Assembly (NCBI GenBank): GCA_013287405.1
Contig: JABDDW010000027.1
Span: forward strand, 1 to 21,399
DNA: 21,399 nucleotides
Source of the DNA: Deltaproteobacteria bacterium
Lineage (GTDB): Bacteria; Bdellovibrionota; Bdellovibrionia; JABDDW01
Direction: 5' to 3'
Numbering within the stretch: the stretch's first letter is position 1; every line of letters begins with the position of its first letter. A program made the position numbers and the translations under genes. Below, in pieces: positions 2,566-17,993 of this stretch. The notes under the pieces were generated by a model. That model did no database searches. It was given only the letters and a program-made list of their open reading frames with translations, and was not told the origin of the DNA.

Positions 2566-3666
2566 ATGAAACGTCTAAAGACTTGGGGTTTGACGGCCCT
2601 TTTGGTTTTAATAGTTTTAGAAGTGCTTACAATTGCTCCCAAGAGACTGGGTACCGCCCCTGACCCAGAGGTAGTTTCGCCGGAGGCGGCTAAGCCCGGG
2701 GGCGGGACACCACCACCATCCACAGTGGCTACAATGTCGCAGATCATGGAAGGTGTGCATTTAGTGGAAACCGGTGGAGGCCGAAAGCAGTGGGAGCTCG
2801 ACTCTCAAAAGGCTCAAGGCTTTAAAGATAAGGGGAGTTGGAAATTAGAAGGAGTCCGAGTGAAGTTTTTTAGTCTCAATGGCAGTACTTATTCGGTTAC
2901 TGGACATGATGGGACTGTTCAAATGGAAACTAAGGACATGTATATAGAAGGTAATGTTGTCACAACGACCTCTGAAGGTTACACATTTAAAACCAAATCC
3001 CTAAAATACTCCGCTGGTGAAAAATCCTTAACCACTCCTGATGCCGTGAAAATAACCGGTCCAAGATCTGAGGGTCCTTTTCAATTGGACGGGGTTGGCT
3101 TCAGGGCTGACCTCAACAATAGTTCGATGAAGCTTGACCACTCCGTCCACGCCGTTAAACAAATATCTTCCGACGGTGGGACCTCCCCGGTTTTGGGTAC
3201 AAATTTGGAAGACCGAGACGGCGTTAAAGTTATGAACATTCGATCTGAGCACTCTTTTGTAAATGGAAAGACTTCTGAAGTTCATTTTGAGGATAAAGTC
3301 CAGGTCGATATTGAATCTATAAGAATGACGGGTAACCAGGCTGACTTCCTTTACGATAAAAAGACCAGGGCCTTAACTTCGTTATTCATGCAAGGTAATG
3401 TGCGTGTTACAGATCAAGAGCACTGGGCCGCTTCTCAATATGTTCAAGTTTTATTCAAAAAAAATGAATTCGTCCTCTATGGAAATCCCAGCATAAATCA
3501 AAATGGTAATGAATTGCGCGGCCAAGAAATTCGATTTCTCAAGGGCGGAAAAGAGGTGCGGGTCTCAAAAGCCAAAGCTCGTGTAGAACAAGAGGATGCA
3601 GGTCCAAGCAGTTCTAAGGGGCTTAACCTCTTAACCAAGGGGTTTTCTAAAGGGATCGCACAATGA
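2566..3666 (+). CDS. LptC-like protein fused to an LptA/OstA-like domain
   Basis: A 366-aa protein, about twice the usual length of LptC (~190 aa). One N-terminal membrane anchor (about residues 7-24) is followed by a Pro/Gly-rich linker to ~57. Residues ~58-197 form an LptC-like repeat of beta strands ([42 protein letters not shown]). Residues ~215-342 look LptA/OstA-like ([46 protein letters not shown]). LptC and LptA together carry lipopolysaccharide from LptB2FG through the periplasm. The stop overlaps the lptB start by 4 nt (ATGA), which strongly supports the role. No separate lptA is in the window, so this protein may combine both bridge components. Confidence 0.75.
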
Positions 3667-12256: not shown

Positions 12257-14076
12257 ACAACACTGGCGGCGAACTTACGCCTCTCGATCATATTAGAAAT
12301 TTTTCAATTATTGCCCATATCGATCATGGCAAGAGCACTCTTGCCGATCGCCTTCTAGAAGAAACCGGCGCCCTTAGCCAACGGGAACTTAAAGACCAAT
12401 TTCTGGACAACATGGAACTGGAACGGGAACGGGGCATCACCATTAAGGCGCAAACCGTGCGACTTGATTTTAAATCTAAGGATGGAAAGACTTACCAACT
12501 CAATCTTATCGATACTCCTGGGCACGTTGATTTTAGTTACGAAGTTTCAAGATCATTGGCCGCAAGTGAAGGAGCCATTCTCGTCGTCGATGCTTCACAA
12601 GGTGTGGAGGCCCAAACCTTAGCTAATGTCTATATGGCCATTGATAATAATCTTGAGATCATTCCCGTCCTCAATAAAATTGATTTACCGGCAGCGGATC
12701 CCGAGAGTGTGCGAAGTCAAATTGAGGACACCATCGGAATAGATGCCAGCGAGGCTATCCTAGCTAGTGCTAAAGAAAAAATCGGTATTGCTGAAATTTT
12801 GGAGGCCGTTGTTCAGAAAGTCCCTCCTCCAAAAACTGATAAGGCAGGCGTTCTTCGAGCTCTCATATTTGACAGCTGGTTTGATCCCTACCAGGGAGTG
12901 GTCATTTTAGTGAGGGTTGTCGACGGCAAAGTAACACCGGGAGCAAAAATTCGTCTTATGGCCGTGGGTAAAGATTTTGAAGTTCTTAAAGTCGGAGCTT
13001 TTGCCCCGTTTGCGCGAGAAATGCCCGAGCTCAATCCCGGAGAGGTGGGCTTTATCATTGCTAATATCAAAGACGTCCATGACACCAAAATCGGTGACAC
13101 GGTGACCGATGCAAAGAAGCCCACAACCCAAGCTCTAAAAGGTTTTAAGGTTGTAACACCGATGGTGTTCAGTGGGATTTTCCCGGTGGACGGGCCCGAT
13201 TATGAGAACTTAAGGGATGCCTTAGATAAATTGACTCTTAATGACTCAAGTTTTACCTATGAACCAGAAACAAGTCTTGCTTTGGGGTTTGGCTTTCGCT
13301 GCGGGTTTTTGGGGCTCCTCCACATGGAAATCATCCAAGAACGCCTCGAACGTGAATACAAACTCAATCTTATTACAACCGCACCGAGCGTTGTTTACCG
13401 CGTGACAAAGACAAATGGTGAAGTTTTGGAATTAGAAAACCCAGCCCTTCTTCCACCTACAACCAGTATTTTGAAAATGGAAGAACCTATAATTCAAGCC
13501 ACGATACATTGCCCCACGGAATTTATCGGTGGAATCTTGAAGCTTTGCGAAGAAAAGCGAGGCGTGCAAAAAAAATTAGAATACGTTACGTCAATTAAAG
13601 CGATAATTATCTATGAGCTTCCACTTAATGAAGTAGTTCTTGATTTTTACGATAAGCTTAAAAGTATTTCTAAAGGTTATGCCTCCCTGGATTACGAATT
13701 CTTGGAGTTTCGAGAAAGTCAGCTTGTCAAAGTGGACATCCTTATCAATGGCGACCAAGTGGATGCCCTTTCTCTTATCGTTCATGAGAGTAAGGCGTAT
13801 AATCGAGGTCGAAAGCTCACGGAGAAGTTAAAGGAGTTACTCAGTCGACAACAGTTTCAGGTCGCTATTCAGGCCGCTATTGGGGCAAAAATCATCGCCC
13901 GAGAGACTCTTGGCGCGCTGCGAAAAGACGTCACTGCGAAATGTTATGGCGGAGATATCAGTCGTAAGCGTAAACTCTTAGAGAAACAGAAAGAGGGAAA
14001 AAAGCGGATGAAACAGGTGGGTAGCGTCGAAATCCCCCAAGAAGCTTTTTTAGCCATATTGAAAGTGGAGGAATAA
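12253..14076 (+). CDS. lepA: elongation factor 4 (LepA)
   Basis: A 607-aa translational GTPase that acts on stalled or mispositioned ribosomes. The likely start is TTG at 12253, inside the TTGA overlap with the upstream stop, with GGAGAGG at 12236-12242; no ATG lies before the conserved [22 protein letters not shown]-motifs: AHIDHGKST (21-29), [17 protein letters not shown] and SAKEKIG, where Lys replaces the common Thr-Gly but is compatible. Domains II-V and the LepA-specific C-terminus are complete ([20 protein letters not shown], then [10 protein letters not shown]). Downstream are two signal peptidases, an association (lepA-lepB) known from E. coli. Confidence 0.97.
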
Positions 14077-14822
14077 TGTCAGCGAAGAAAAACACCGGAG
14101 ATAAAAGGGGGACCTGGAGTAGTGGAATGGGGTCCTTGGTCCTCGCCGTGCTTGTGGCTCTGGCGATTCGTTGGGCTCTGATCGAGGCCTATGTCATACC
14201 GTCGGGAAGTATGCTCCCTTCGTTGCTTATTCAGGACCATATTTTTGTAAATAAACTCATTTACGGAGTGAGAATTCCATTTTCAAAGGAGTGGCTCCTC
14301 AAATTTCGTTTGCCGGAAAAAGGTGAGGTGATCGTTTTTAAATACCCCGAAGACGAGAGCACATTTTTTATTAAACGAGTTATTGGGACTCCCGGAGATC
14401 GGGTTTCATGGGACGGGACGCAGCTCACGATTAACGGCGAAAAAGTCGCCACTCAACCCAATCCAGAGAAAGACTTTTTCATGTCTATTTTGAATGATGA
14501 AGAGATGTCTGGTGGCAAAGAATCCTACGAAATTTTAGAAGAGAATCTCAATTCTCACAAGCATCCGACTCTTATAAAAAAAGAAGCCATGCACGTCCAA
14601 TGGGATAATCAAGAAGTTCCAAAGGATTCTCTTTTTGTAATGGGCGATAATCGCGACAATTCAAATGACAGCCGATACTGGGGTTATGTCCCCGTAAATA
14701 ATATCTTAGGGCGAGCCATGTTCGTGTGGTTGAGTTGTGACTCAACCCTTCCGGGACCTCTTAGTTTTGTTTGCAACCCTCTTTCCATCCGATTTAAGCG
14801 ATTCTTTCACCAAGTTAAATAA
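14076..14822 (+). CDS. lepB: type I signal peptidase, first of two
   Basis: A 248-aa inner-membrane protease that removes signal peptides from exported proteins. One membrane segment (~19-38) is followed by the catalytic Ser45 in IPSGSMLPSL, the general-base Lys100 in FFIKRVIGTPGD, and box E GDNRDNSNDSRYWGYVP. The start ATG shares one base with the lepA stop, with GGAGGA just upstream. The region between Lys100 and box E has a ~40-residue variable insert rich in Glu, Lys and Asn. The C-terminal tail has two cysteines. The second signal peptidase begins 6 nt after its stop. Confidence 0.94.
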   Translation: MSAKKNTGDKRGTWSSGMGSLVLAVLVALAIRWALIEAYVIPSGSMLPSLLIQDHIFVNKLIYGVRIPFSKEWLLKFRLPEKGEVIVFKYPEDESTFFIKRVIGTPGDRVSWDGTQLTINGEKVATQPNPEKDFFMSILNDEEMSGGKESYEILEENLNSHKHPTLIKKEAMHVQWDNQEVPKDSLFVMGDNRDNSNDSRYWGYVPVNNILGRAMFVWLSCDSTLPGPLSFVCNPLSIRFKRFFHQVK

Positions 14823-14828
14823 AAAGAC

Positions 14829-15533
14829 GTGGCGAAGAGTAAGAGAAACGTCTTTCGGGAATACGTTGAGAGCTTCGTGGTGGCGGTAGTCATTGCCCTC
14901 GTCTTACGAACTTTCGTTATAGCGGCCTATAAAATTCCAACGGGAAGCATGATTCCTACTCTAAAAATTGGGGACTGCCTCTTTGCCTTGAAGCTTCCTT
15001 ATGGGTTTCATTTGCCCTTTAGCCACTTGATCCTTTTTGGGCCACAGTCTCCGGATCGCGGAGATGTGGTGGTTTTTAAATATCCTGAGGATCCAAACAT
15101 TTCTTTTGTAAAAAGAGTTATTGCTTTGCCTGGGGACAAAGTTGAAATCCGACAAAAAAGGGTTTTTATAAATGACAAGATTTTGAGGTACGAGCCCGTA
15201 TCAGCAGAAGACGACCAAACCAAAGATATTCCAATGAGAGAGCTCTATATTGTCCAAAGAGAGACCATCGGATCCCATCAACATTATGTCATGTTCAGGC
15301 GGGGAGAGGACGACGATTCGTACGGACCTTTAGTCGTCCCCGAGAAGAAACTTTTTGTATTAGGCGACAATCGGGATTCGTCTGACGATAGCCGCTCTTG
15401 GGGGCTGGTGCCCTTTGAGAACCTAGAAGGCCGGGCGACTTTAATCTGGTGCTCGTTAGACTGGGAAAAGCGTGGGCGTAAACTTGGCCTTCCCTCTTTA
15501 CGGGGGGAGCGGCTCTTTACATTAATTCAATAG
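14829..15533 (+). CDS. lepB: type I signal peptidase, second of two
   Basis: A 234-aa paralogue of the preceding gene, starting with GTG and a weak upstream ribosome site, so it may depend on translation of its neighbour. Membrane segment ~14-33, catalytic Ser40 in IPTGSMIPTL, Lys95 in SFVKRVIALPGD and box E GDNRDSSDDSRSWGLVP are all intact, so both copies should be active. The variable region and tail differ strongly from the first copy, which suggests different substrate sets rather than a recent duplication. The stop overlaps the convergent gene by 7 nt. Confidence 0.94.
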   Translation: MAKSKRNVFREYVESFVVAVVIALVLRTFVIAAYKIPTGSMIPTLKIGDCLFALKLPYGFHLPFSHLILFGPQSPDRGDVVVFKYPEDPNISFVKRVIALPGDKVEIRQKRVFINDKILRYEPVSAEDDQTKDIPMRELYIVQRETIGSHQHYVMFRRGEDDDSYGPLVVPEKKLFVLGDNRDSSDDSRSWGLVPFENLEGRATLIWCSLDWEKRGRKLGLPSLRGERLFTLIQ

Positions 15534-16114
15534 GTTTCGTCTTTTGACTTAGGATTATGAGTTTGAAGTGGATAACCCCCCAAATAAATTTCCATGAGTC
15601 TTTCGAAAAAGAGAATTGAAGAATTCGCTCTAAGATCGAGACCCTTTATAGTTATAGATTGCTGGTGGGTGGTCATGGTCGCTAAAGCACCGGTTTTTTG
15701 AAAAGCTTCTTGGATAAGGGGAATTTCCACTCTTTCAAGCATAATCACCCAGTTGACATCGTTAAGAGAAATATCTAAGGAGGTCCCCGTCAGCGTTATT
15801 GAACTTTGAAATGGACTGGCTTTACCAAAATAGGTCTTTTTGTAGCCGTTTCCACTCCACAAAAGTTGGCTAAAAGTTGGGGCATTCTTGATTAAGAAGT
15901 CTACATCCACTTCTCTCGCCCTCAACCCTTGAAGAACTTGAGTTAATTCCGTTCGTAAATAAGATTTGCCCCTCTTACCAGGGCTCTTTGCTAACACCTG
16001 TCTGCAAATCTGGGCCTCGCCTTGAGGAGCGCCTGAACCCTGGATCGTAGCTGCGTACGAAGAAAAGTTAAAGCATATGACCAAACCTGAAATCAGTATT
16101 AGAATTCTATGCAT
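15527..16114 (-). CDS. secreted protein of unknown function, single mature cysteine
   Basis: A 195-aa protein. I chose ATG at 16114, where AAGG lies eight bases upstream; a GTG two codons earlier has no room for a ribosome site. The signal peptide is clear (MHRILILISGLVICF, cleavage near SSYA). The mature chain has one cysteine, Cys37 in AQICRQVLAK, about 15 residues after cleavage. The rest has a mixed strand/helix pattern (FQSSITLTGTSLDISLNDVN, WVIMLERVEIPLIQEAF) and ends in a polar DETY. I recognise no family. Its 3' end overlaps the second lepB by 7 nt on the opposite strand. Confidence 0.65.
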   Translation of the reverse strand: MHRILILISGLVICFNFSSYAATIQGSGAPQGEAQICRQVLAKSPGKRGKSYLRTELTQVLQGLRAREVDVDFLIKNAPTFSQLLWSGNGYKKTYFGKASPFQSSITLTGTSLDISLNDVNWVIMLERVEIPLIQEAFQKTGALATMTTHQQSITIKGLDLRANSSILFFERLMEIYLGGYPLQTHNPKSKDETY

Positions 16115-16120
16115 CCTCAC

Positions 16121-16306: not shown

Positions 16307-16957
16307 TCAAAATCTATGGAGCTTAGGGTTTTTTCGTCTAACGGGGGGGTGATTTTCAATATAAAGCTCCGGGGCAACAGATCTCCCCTCGTTGCTTATG
16401 ACTTGGCTCACTCTTAACAAGCGAATAGCGGGGATGTTGACAGCAAAGCTTTCTACAACGTCTTTTACCAGCGACCGATAAAATATGAGGGTTTCTCTAT
16501 TGGGGGTCGCTGCCAGTGCATAGCCTCCTCCACCCGGTTTTTGCGACTTATATCTAACGCGAACGACCTCCCCATTTTTTAGATAAAGAGTTGCAACAGT
16601 AATCAAATTAGGTCCTGGACTAATCACCTCTACATTGGACGGAAGGCCTTGCGGGTTAAAGCTAATTGAGTTCAAGCCTCTAGTGATAGTGACGCGAGAA
16701 ATAAATTGAGGCGGAATTGAGTTAGATATCTTTTTAAACATACGGTCATAGTTTGGATTTTCTTCCGAACTGCTTCCACTTGTATTGGTCCCCCCTAGAC
16801 GATCCCGGCATTTCTCCAACGACAGAGTGGTGGCTCGGGTGAACTCAGACCCGTAGACGAAATTACGTCCTATGAATATCAAAACAAGAAAAGTACTTAC
16901 AAATCTCAATTGAACCCTTAACGACCTCTGAGGTCGTTTTGAAAATGTGGAAAACAT
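16307..16957 (-). CDS. secreted protein of unknown function, single mature cysteine
   Basis: A 216-aa frame with a long basic N-terminus and a hydrophobic signal segment (FVSTFLVLIFIGRNFVYG). A TTG at 16909 (200 aa) has a better ribosome site, AAGGG five bases upstream, gives a more normal short n-region, and would leave the 19-nt palindrome at 16920-16938 upstream; the ATG at 16957 has only a weak GGAT. Either start gives the same mature protein. Its only cysteine is Cys50 (from the ATG) in SLEKCRDRLGG, about 14 residues after likely cleavage. The body is strand-rich (FISRVTITRGLNSISF, LITVATLYLKNGEVVRVRY) and the C-terminus is basic and Pro-rich. No family was recognised. Confidence 0.6.
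   Translation of the reverse strand: MFSTFSKRPQRSLRVQLRFVSTFLVLIFIGRNFVYGSEFTRATTLSLEKCRDRLGGTNTSGSSSEENPNYDRMFKKISNSIPPQFISRVTITRGLNSISFNPQGLPSNVEVISPGPNLITVATLYLKNGEVVRVRYKSQKPGGGGYALAATPNRETLIFYRSLVKDVVESFAVNIPAIRLLRVSQVISNEGRSVAPELYIENHPPVRRKNPKLHRF
16920..16938. promoter_or_regulatory. 19-nt perfect palindrome near the start of the 16307-16957 gene
   Basis: AACGACCTC (16920-16928) and GAGGTCGTT (16930-16938) are exact reverse complements around a single T. On the minus strand it abuts the AAGGG ribosome site of the TTG start at 16909, so it may be an operator or a short mRNA hairpin. If translation starts at 16957 it is instead inside codons for the n-region. Confidence 0.4.
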
Positions 16958-17131
16958 TGCAAGATCCAGGCACGGTGGACTGGACTCTGGTGCGATTATA
17001 CGTAGAAAGGACCGCCTGCCTGGTGGTTAATTCATATACGAGTGCGAATTTTTGTCAGTGTTGTGTCCGATTCTTGCGCGAACTTGGATTTATAGGCAAA
17101 GGCTTCAGGCAACGGCCATCGGTTTGGGGAG
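16958..17131. other. 174-nt gap without a supported gene
   Basis: A plus-strand open frame of 89 codons crosses this region (16939-17208), but it has no ribosome site, runs into the four-helix-bundle gene in antisense and has no domain-like composition. No promoter or terminator could be defined with confidence. Confidence 0.4.
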
Positions 17132-17443
17132 TCAGGGTGGGGGAGGTTGATTCACCAATTTATACAAAGCGCCCCCTAAGTGATGAGCTTTACCTTTTAA
17201 GTCATTAAGATCTTCAGCTTCAATAAGAGATTGCGTCTCTCGCAATGAAGCGAATGCTATTTCATAATACCTGATCTTATCTTTAAAAGATCTCTTAGTT
17301 GATCCTTCAGCCAGATTTAATGGAATCGATAATGCGGCTCTGCAGAGTTGATCTCTTGCGTAAGCTGGCAATTCCCTATGCTTTTTACAGTCTTTGTAAA
17401 ACTCAATGGCCAGGGAGTGGGTTCTAAAATTTTGAAGCGACAT
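17132..17443 (-). CDS. four-helix-bundle protein (23S rRNA intervening-sequence family), minus copy
   Basis: A 103-aa protein with the family hallmarks: an aromatic N-terminal helix (LQNFRTHSLAIEFYKDC), a second helix ending in the conserved SIPLNLAEGS, then SFKDKIRYYEIAFASLRETQS and a C-terminal helix with LGGALYKLV. The family, first found in 23S rRNA intervening sequences, forms pentameric four-helix bundles and is related to Avd of diversity-generating retroelements; its general role is unclear. AAAAGGAGA precedes the ATG. The gene stands head to head with a paralogue, and the two share a perfect inverted repeat upstream. It ends in an odd Pro run (QPPPP). No rRNA is nearby. Confidence 0.88.
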   Translation of the reverse strand: MSLQNFRTHSLAIEFYKDCKKHRELPAYARDQLCRAALSIPLNLAEGSTKRSFKDKIRYYEIAFASLRETQSLIEAEDLNDLKGKAHHLGGALYKLVNQPPPP

Positions 17444-17448
17444 TCTGA

Positions 17449-17510
17449 TTCTCCTTTTTAAAAAAATTAAGTTCCGCTCAAGTGAAACTTAATTTTTTTA
17501 AAAAGGAGAA
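17449..17510. repeat. perfect 25-bp inverted repeat between divergent four-helix-bundle genes
   Basis: Nt 17449-17473 and 17486-17510 are exact reverse complements, separated by the 12-nt spacer CCGCTCAAGTGA. The outer end of each arm is the ribosome site AAAAAGGAGAA of the gene leaving in that direction. After a short unequal gap the symmetry resumes inside both genes: a 21-nt block that starts two codons (minus gene) or one codon (plus gene) into the coding sequence is identical. By symmetry both genes would need a promoter inside the palindrome; TTAAGT-N17-TAATTT (17467-17495) is a weak plus-strand candidate. Confidence 0.95.
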
Positions 17511-17517
17511 CTTTAAG

Positions 17518-17871
17518 ATGCTTCAAAATTTTAGAACCCACACTTTAGCCCTGGAATTTTACAAAAACTGCTCAAAGGTGAAAATGCCAGGTTTTATAAG
17601 GTCCCAATTTCAAAGAGCAAGCCTTAGCATCCTTAATAACTTAGCTGAGGGCAGCGCAAAAACTTCCTTCAAGGATAGGGCTCGATTCTATGAAATAGCA
17701 TTAGCTTCTTTTAGGGAGTGTGAAAGTATGCTCCTTGTTTTAGAGCAAAAGGAATTAATGGCTAGATACGATAAACTTGGAGCTTCACTTTATAGATTGC
17801 ATAGATTCACCCTGAACCCAGACGCAAAGAACCGATTCCCTGACCTGATCCCAGCTTACCTGAAGCCTTAA
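17518..17871 (+). CDS. four-helix-bundle protein (23S rRNA intervening-sequence family), plus copy
   Basis: A 117-aa paralogue of the divergent gene, roughly half identical by eye: LQNFRTHTLALEFYKNC, SILNNLAEGSAKTSFKDRARFYEIALASFRECES and LGASLYRL align. The ATG at 17518 is chosen from AAAAGGAG about ten bases upstream; a start at 17482 would translate the palindrome arm (KLNFFKKENFK) and is unlikely. It has a longer Pro/Arg-containing C-terminal tail (NPDAKNRFPDLIPAYLKP) than its partner. The first 21 nt after the start codon are identical to the partner, while the remainder has diverged. The two could form a mixed oligomer. Function is unknown. Confidence 0.88.
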   Translation: MLQNFRTHTLALEFYKNCSKVKMPGFIRSQFQRASLSILNNLAEGSAKTSFKDRARFYEIALASFRECESMLLVLEQKELMARYDKLGASLYRLHRFTLNPDAKNRFPDLIPAYLKP

Positions 17872-17993
17872 ACCTGTGAACAGGTCCTTCCCTATTCGTT
17901 CCACTCTAAAATCACAAAGAACCCATTTTTATGACCATTTTTCAACGCCAGGTCCATTGACAAAACCCCTGGGTTTCATTACTCTTTTTCACG
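17872..17993. other. intergenic region upstream of pyrB
   Basis: Just after the four-helix-bundle gene, ACCTGT and ACAGGT form a short perfect inverted repeat around GA (17872-17885), without a T-tract, so at best a weak terminator. The 3' half holds the pyrB promoter, listed separately. Confidence 0.35.
17957..17985 (+). promoter_or_regulatory. pyrB promoter with palindrome in the spacer, probably leaderless
   Basis: A perfect TTGACA (17957-17962) is followed after 17 nt by TACTCT (17980-17985, three of six to the -10). The start site would fall near 17992, two bases before the pyrB ATG, and no ribosome site exists upstream, so the mRNA is probably leaderless. The spacer contains AAACCC-CT-GGGTTT (17963-17976), an exact inverted repeat and a likely operator. 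Confidence 0.5.

What the first reader, a model, noticed from the sequence alone, without database searches (positions are those of the whole stretch)
17132..17871. Head-to-head four-helix-bundle paralogues around an exact 25-bp palindrome
Two divergent members of the 23S rRNA intervening-sequence protein family share a perfect 25-bp inverted repeat (12-nt spacer) and an identical 21-nt block at the start of each gene. The rest of the proteins has diverged to roughly half identity. The palindrome has therefore been kept exact while the genes drifted, through gene conversion, selection on the site, or a recent copy of just this part. A shared cruciform-capable control region for two subunits of one oligomer would be a small undescribed system, and it resembles the paired inverted ends of rRNA intervening sequences but sits outside rRNA.
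Basis: partly seen in the sequence, partly recalled or inferred. Interest (0 to 1): 0.7.

Follow-up and report, generated by a model that had tools for sequence, protein, structure and literature searches.

The report
Paired-gene repeat element around a hairpin
Two small facing genes sit on either side of a DNA hairpin, and in other bacteria the same two-gene unit is scattered around the genome like a mobile element, with the two hairpin arms changing together.

Summary
In detail: two divergent PF05635 (23S rRNA intervening-sequence protein) genes flank an exact 25-bp inverted repeat. The reading changes: this looks like one copy of an element type. G450 has ten pairs at ten places, four with whole centres; some copies are 97-99% identical at their gene ends but lie in different flanks. 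One copy follows pyrH, another precedes frr, genes adjacent in 29 of 29 other loci examined. The repeated unit there (about 780 bp) holds only the two PF05635 genes. Arm sequences differ between genomes but stay largely self-complementary; between two related genomes three substitutions and one insertion are mirrored in both arms. Of 40 solitary PF05635 genes, none has upstream arms of 12 bp or more. Unexpectedly, PF05635 genes are often bordered by degenerate 7-nt repeats (not significant in the window). Best reading: a transposase-less, IVS-like mobile element outside rRNA whose hairpin hides both ribosome-binding sites. How it moves is unknown, and the window's own copy number could not be checked.

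The parts
17132..17443 (-). gene A, PF05635/TIGR02436 four-helix-bundle protein, 103 aa
   Evidence: profiles over cut-off; clusters with P0006/P0008/P0010/P0012, support 100/98
17518..17871 (+). gene B, PF05635/TIGR02436 four-helix-bundle protein, 117 aa
   Evidence: profiles over cut-off; clusters with P0002 (100/98) and P0003 (96/81); model with four long helices, pLDDT 88
17449..17473 (.). left arm of the exact 25-bp inverted repeat; holds the Shine-Dalgarno of gene A (CTCCT 17451-17455 = AGGAG on the - strand) and an A7 tract (17460-17466)
   Evidence: the mirror-image SD on the other arm is paired in the predicted stem
17474..17485 (.). 12-nt loop CCGCTCAAGTGA; several other genomes have loops like CYGCCCnnGGGTGA
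17486..17510 (.). right arm; holds the Shine-Dalgarno of gene B (AGGAG 17504-17508) and a T7 tract (17493-17499)
17417..17437 (-). 21-nt block identical in both genes, copy in gene A
17521..17541 (+). 21-nt block identical in both genes, copy in gene B
17099..17112 (.). left member of a 14-nt inverted repeat (93%) that brackets both genes; possible end of the unit
   Evidence: I4; could be chance
17856..17869 (.). right member of that 14-nt inverted repeat; overlaps a heptad-like stretch TTACCTG-AAGCCTT-AAACCTG-TGAACAG (17856-17883) seen by eye
   Evidence: I4; heptad period not significant in the window

Best explanation
The pair is a diverged copy of a small dispersed element: two head-to-head PF05635 genes around a central hairpin, multiplied as one unit, without a transposase of its own. 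Shown in relatives: the unit recurs at unrelated places, has defined ends, lies in a disturbed gene order, and decays by losing its centre. Inferred for the window: it is such an insertion in the interval between signal peptidase and pyrB genes. Mechanism, inferred: any RNA that crosses the centre from either side folds into one long stem that pairs the Shine-Dalgarno of the downstream gene (and has a T-tract after the inner stem), so read-through from host promoters cannot express that gene whichever way the unit lies; the genes are made only from transcripts that start inside the stem. The PF05635 proteins, kin of the DGR protein Avd, are taken to bind the hairpin or the heptad borders in moving or copying the unit, using host or other enzymes. 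The arms are kept complementary by selection on the stem together with template-switch correction or conversion between arms.
For: Head-to-head pairs: 20 of 50 fetched relative loci show both genes, and 32 of 50 have a contig end within 150 bp of a match, as repeats (or hairpins) cause in assemblies. G450: ten pairs at ten places, best copies 96-99% alike over the last 135 nt of the gene match, similarity ending just outside the genes (L053 2458-3236). pyrH-frr adjacent in 29 of 29 other loci examined, whereas in G450 pyrH abuts one copy and frr another. Same place downstream of purD: intact pair in G493, centre-less remnant in G496. Fourteen whole centres, from the window and nine genomes, all fold into a stem; G493 and G496 arms differ by 3 substitutions and 1 insertion, each mirrored in the other arm. 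SD core paired in the stem in 11 of 13 centres parsed. Both gene types kept in the intact G450 copies and in G493/G496, so the pair is the unit. dN/dS 0.10-0.35 between same-side copies or orthologues where computable. lepA-lepB-pyrB-pyrC kept in four genomes of other groups, none with A or B there.
Against: No whole genome of the window's organism is held, so its copy number and an empty site in a near relative are untested. The repeated unit has no transposase gene, and I recognised no target-site duplication by eye. The mobility evidence comes from another phylum (window LepA 65-68% identical to the six genomes compared). Complementarity is not always perfect: G450 copies a, b, c have one extra A; G466 L086 and G461 have mismatches or bulges; one G475 copy (L079) has lost both N-termini and the original palindrome. 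Grouping of G493/G496 genes by side has weak support, and G475 sides are unresolved. The heptad border is not significant in the window. No promoter-like site lies between the start codons in the sigma-70 scan. The pyrH-frr split needs an insertion plus a later rearrangement, or a misassembly; the G450 contig ends inside the pyrH copy.
Confidence: 0.66

Rival explanations
1. The pair is a resident two-gene unit of the host, and the palindrome is a shared control site (operator, cruciform or bidirectional terminator) kept by selection; multiplication in other genomes is secondary.
For: Purifying selection on the proteins; SDs inside the arms; A-tract/stem/T-tract layout on both strands; A and B belong to different supported groups.
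Against: Unit repeated at unrelated places with near-identical copies; patchy presence, strong matches in 10 of 45 genomes of that phylum (my count at E below 1e-25). The terminator scan found none in the palindrome, but it allows loops of 3-8 nt only, so this is weak.
Confidence: 0.16
2. The exact arms are a passive by-product: a head-to-head inverted duplication whose centre is kept perfect only by quasipalindrome template-switching or short-tract conversion, without any function of the stem.
For: The G471 pair is 92% identical in protein and its palindrome runs 43 nt through both start codons; in G450 copy d the leaders and loop have swapped sides relative to the gene types, so exchange at the centre does happen; centre-less copies show it is unstable.
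Against: SD, A/T tracts and often a similar loop are retained across very different arm sequences and two phyla; G493 and G496 keep exact stems although synonymous sites are near saturation (pS 0.72 and 0.81).
Confidence: 0.16
3. Two chance neighbours of a common family with a coincidental inverted repeat.
For: Only that the family is common (29 of 41 genomes).
Against: Chance arm length at most 13 in 40 simulations; the hairpin recurs in nine other genomes, with both genes seen in seven of them.
Confidence: 0.01

Closest known systems
23S rRNA intervening sequence (IVS) encoding S23p, e.g. the 428-nt IVS of Coxiella burnetii (PMC4990558, abstract and passages read)
   Same: Small unit with a PF05635-type (S23p) ORF; called a selfish element, possibly mobile; inverted repeats; that paper also reports tandem heptamers (GACAGAT) just upstream of the ORF.
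   Different: Here outside rRNA, two genes head to head, a self-complementary centre between them, many copies per genome in some relatives.
TAACTGA heptamer direct repeats of Beggiatoaceae, Cyanobacteria and Bacteroidetes (PMC4679880, abstract and passages read)
   Same: Intergenic 7-nt repeats of patchy distribution, with a mobile factor suspected by the author.
   Different: The main text has no occurrence of 23S, S23 or intervening; here heptads of many sequences border PF05635 genes.
Diversity-generating retroelement protein Avd
   Same: Similar fold: the model matches 8ub7 chain C (probability 0.95, but E 0.76) below 2gsc and 2rld; kinship of PF05635 and Avd is stated in PMC10053308 (passages read).
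   Different: No reverse transcriptase was noticed among the ORFs next to these units (by eye; not searched with a profile).
REP/REPIN elements with RAYT transposases, and MITEs (recalled; PMC3116915 and PMC5896051 seen in a search listing only)
   Same: Short palindromic dispersed intergenic units.
   Different: They depend on a transposase (recalled); this unit codes for two proteins of its own that are not known transposases.

Membership tests
PF05635 / TIGR02436 protein family | profile score over the curated cut-off | tested here: met
   A 55.7 and B 56.5 bits vs 33.8; 61.2 and 59.6 vs 24
PF05635 / TIGR02436 protein family | four-helix-bundle fold like 2gsc/2rld | tested here: met
   model of B, four long helices; 2gsc best match, 2rld next
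23S rRNA IVS | located within a 23S rRNA gene | tested here: not met
   no rRNA found by Rfam in the window nor in 17 relative loci
23S rRNA IVS | excised from RNA by RNase III at a basal stem | not testable with these tools
   needs RNA
Insertion sequence / transposon | encodes a transposase | tested here: not met
   the repeated unit in G450 (L053 2458-3236) has only the two PF05635 genes; in the window the flanking ORFs 15527-16120 and 16307-16957 match no Pfam family
Insertion sequence / transposon | several copies at unrelated places in one genome | tested here: met
   met in G450, G466, G475; not testable in the window's organism
Insertion sequence / transposon | terminal inverted repeats and target-site duplication | tested here: inconclusive
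   14-nt inverted repeat brackets the window pair; GGGGTGA..CCCC-like hairpin at most gene ends in G450; no duplication recognised by eye
Diversity-generating retroelement | reverse transcriptase with template and variable repeats | not tested
   none noticed by eye among neighbouring ORFs

The most novel reading that the evidence does not exclude
PF05635 proteins are the mobility proteins of a wide, unrecognised class of transposase-less elements whose addresses are arrays of 7-nt repeats: solitary genes, rRNA IVSs and head-to-head pairs are forms of one system, the pair form having added a self-complementary centre that both silences read-through expression and serves as the structure the proteins act on.
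Probability: 0.33. Interest if true: 0.9.

Novelty: new variant of a known kind. Interest (0 to 1): 0.75.

Why it matters
[quoted passage not shown] A multicopy form outside rRNA, with sibling copies, remnants and a disturbed gene order, would make mobility testable. The link between PF05635 genes and 7-nt repeat arrays may also give a source for heptamer repeats whose spread had no evident mechanism in PMC4679880 (abstract).

Tried and rejected
Finding the window's own phylum: two genome-contig scans, with the PF05635 alignment A2 (nothing confirmed) and with PyrB (seven distant loci); the phylum of G543 holds one genome (no match) and that of G577 eight, two of them with one weak match each. 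A viral-contig scan with A2 confirmed nothing. The pair's DNA had no match in the plasmid collection and protein B none in the phage collection at E 1e-5. LepA did not place the window in any of the six genomes' groups.

Heptads as a window feature: not shown there, best lags 11 and 13. Many of the 60 flanks are copies in the same genomes and so not independent. The strict array counts used a threshold set after looking at examples; the same threshold on 30 Bacteroidota loci gave arrays within 400 bp in 7 of 30 loci, 9 arrays in 35,460 bases near the gene against 5 in 57,893 elsewhere, a weaker contrast than 19 in 89,510 against 4 in 652,860 (all 4 in loci that hold a PF05635 gene). In one search one place is counted twice (L069 and L176) and twelve loci (L040, L060-L068, L145, L146) were left out as duplicates. 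In one search the gene of five loci was not found by my profile and a default position was used.

Rfam gave nothing for the hairpin. In one search one row (G466x) was parsed wrongly by my script (a small side stem) and is not used; L072 and L073 of the 16-row alignment A4 are cut by contig ends and are not counted as whole centres. The count of structure pairs was not used because the MAFFT alignment shifts the arms.

Literature: searches (listings, and passages of seven papers) showed no paper that describes head-to-head PF05635 pairs around a palindrome or heptad arrays as a general mark of the family; only an open-licence library was searched. PMC3936711 reports 23S_rRNA_IVP genes in cas loci (passage) and a figure legend of PMC10910872 lists the domain; whether heptad arrays cause some such calls was not examined.

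Full report
WHAT IS THERE. Window genes A (17132-17443, -) and B (17518-17871, +) are both PF05635/TIGR02436 proteins, 53% identical over 94 aa. Between them lie exact 25-bp arms with a 12-nt spacer. The arms include both Shine-Dalgarno cores and an A7/T7 tract; the 74 nt between the start codons fold to -31.1 kcal/mol as RNA. Chance is not a good account: simulated windows gave at most 13 bp. The 21-nt common block is real but only marginally beyond what the shared protein motif LQNFRTH would give (p = 0.05); that motif is also present in relatives of both types.

REACHING RELATIVES. No genome is held for the window. Searching 'relatives' of an unrelated handle with the alignment A2 reached G450, an unnamed 2.5-Mb genome with 20 matches, which pair up head to head at ten places. 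Its phylum holds 45 genomes; 17 of 45 have a match at E 1e-12 or better, and ten of these (G450, 461, 466, 467, 469, 471, 475, 479, 493, 496) have matches below 1e-25 (my reading of the table). The window does not group with that phylum: its LepA is 65-68% identical to each of six compared genomes, while two members of that phylum are 88% identical to each other.

ARCHITECTURE. I fetched 50 places. In 20 of 50 both genes are seen head to head; in 32 of 50 a contig ends within 150 bp of a match. Fourteen centres are whole (window; four in G450; two in G466; one each in G461, G469, G471, G475, G479, G493, G496), and each folds into a stem-loop, -21.6 to -56.0 kcal/mol. Both genes are seen beside such a centre in seven of the nine genomes (not in G469 and G479). 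The arms are different sequences: G493 and G496 have 31-bp exact arms, G475 25, G471 43 reaching through both start codons, G450 16-20. Shared are an A-tract on one arm, a T-tract on the other, usually an SD in the arm (11 of 13 parsed), and often a loop like CYGCCCnnGGGTGA. Between G493 and G496 (PurD 90% identical) the arms differ by three substitutions and one inserted base, each present in complementary form on the other arm, although synonymous sites of the genes are near saturation (pS 0.72 and 0.81). Exceptions: G450 a, b and c carry one unpaired A; G466 L086 and G461 have mismatches or bulges; one G475 copy (L079) has lost both N-termini and has another 13-bp repeat instead.

A UNIT THAT MULTIPLIES. 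In a tree of 36 proteins, G450 genes fall into two types, one per side of the pair; type 2 (three genes) is supported 100/99 and three of the four type-1 genes 97/84. G493/G496 genes also group by side rather than by genome, but with weak support; the two G475 sides are unresolved; the two G471 sides group together 100/100. In G450, then, the pair is what is copied. In G450 copy d the leaders and loop are swapped relative to the gene types, a flip or exchange of the centre. WIN_A and WIN_B fall in separate groups, each with relatives elsewhere (P0006, P0008, P0010, P0012, 100/98; P0002 100/98 and P0003 96/81). G450 copies at different places are up to 99% identical over the last 135 nt of the gene match and similarity stops shortly outside the genes: for L053, 2458-3236, about 780 bp, including a heptad stretch on the right. 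L055 is 97-99% like L052 on both sides but lacks its 226-bp centre; L054, L056 and L057 also lack the centre; L058 and L059 have N runs there. dN/dS is 0.10-0.35 between same-side copies or orthologues and 0.22-0.50 between the two sides of a pair; two of 15 comparisons were saturated.

DISTURBED GENE ORDER. pyrH is followed by frr at 34-170 bp in 29 of 29 other loci examined (29 of the 38 other matching genomes were given as loci); in G450 pyrH is followed by one copy (the contig ends inside it) and frr is preceded by another copy elsewhere (names by NCBIfam). Downstream of purD, G493 has an intact pair and G496 a remnant in which the C-terminal ends of both genes are fused, followed by an array of CAGAGAA. 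For the window itself, lepA-lepB-pyrB-pyrC is kept in four genomes chosen because searches showed the two genes close together; none of the four has a match to A or B there (tblastn, E 1e-3). The window interval also holds two unnamed genes, so this is consistent with insertion, not proof.

HEPTADS. Best self-match lag of the 220 nt after the gene is 7 or 14 in 31 of 60 paired-type gene ends (copies of one genome included), against 49 of 488 control windows; in 28 of 39 downstream and 19 of 40 upstream flanks of mostly solitary genes from other groups, against 33 of 304; in 16 of 28 downstream and 14 of 29 upstream flanks in the phylum of G002 (a Flavobacteriales record), against 36 of 245. 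The repeat differs from genome to genome. The window's two ends do not show it (best lags 11 and 13). The Coxiella IVS paper reports tandem GACAGAT heptamers before its ORF (PMC4990558, passage read), which fits. Solitary genes lack the palindrome: 0 of 40 have upstream arms of 12 bp or more (one has 11; 40 of 41 loci had a match), and by eye I saw no close divergent pair among the matches of 54 of 398 genomes or among the listed matches of 29 of 41 genomes (whose list is cut).

PROTEIN. The model of B is a four-helix bundle (pLDDT 88) matching 2gsc and 2rld, and weakly (E 0.76) Avd in the DGR ribonucleoprotein 8ub7. 2gsc is listed with five chains; a homopentamer is reported for the Xanthomonas protein (PMC4990558, passage).

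MECHANISM. Shown: dispersal of the unit in relatives, co-changing arms, SDs inside most predicted stems, loss of centre in decayed copies. Inferred: silencing of read-through from either side; protein action on hairpin or heptads; use of foreign enzymes for movement. The symmetry would explain why a head-to-head pair is useful: whichever way host transcription crosses the unit, it meets the same stem before the sense gene. Exchange between arms (template switching, conversion, flips) plus selection on the stem would keep them complementary.

VERDICT. Main gap: nothing could be tested in the window's own species.

Noticed in passing
L008-L049 and L206-L235, flanks of PF05635 genes: Degenerate 7-nt repeat arrays border PF05635 genes in several groups, sometimes as inverted arrays on the two sides (L008, L030), with a different heptamer in each genome.
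   Followed up: partly
L053 2776-2848 against L052 2797-2869: Same loop and leaders in opposite orientation relative to the two gene types: the centre of the unit has flipped or been exchanged.
   Followed up: partly
L054-L057; L177 about 3180-3320: Copies that have lost the hairpin and N-terminal parts of both genes: palindrome-centred decay.
   Followed up: partly
L058 and L059: Runs of N lie at the centre of two G450 copies, perhaps unassembled hairpins.
   Followed up: no
window 14076-15533: Two signal peptidase I-like genes in tandem after lepA; in four syntenic genomes both match one and the same place.
   Followed up: no
window 15527-16120 and 16307-16957 (-): Two unnamed genes without a Pfam match in the same lepB-pyrB interval as the pair; they may have arrived separately.
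   Followed up: no
PMC3936711, PMC10910872: 23S_rRNA_IVP genes are reported in cas loci in the first and named in a CRISPR-related figure legend of the second; heptad arrays beside these genes might be mistaken for repeats of that kind in automatic scans.
   Followed up: no
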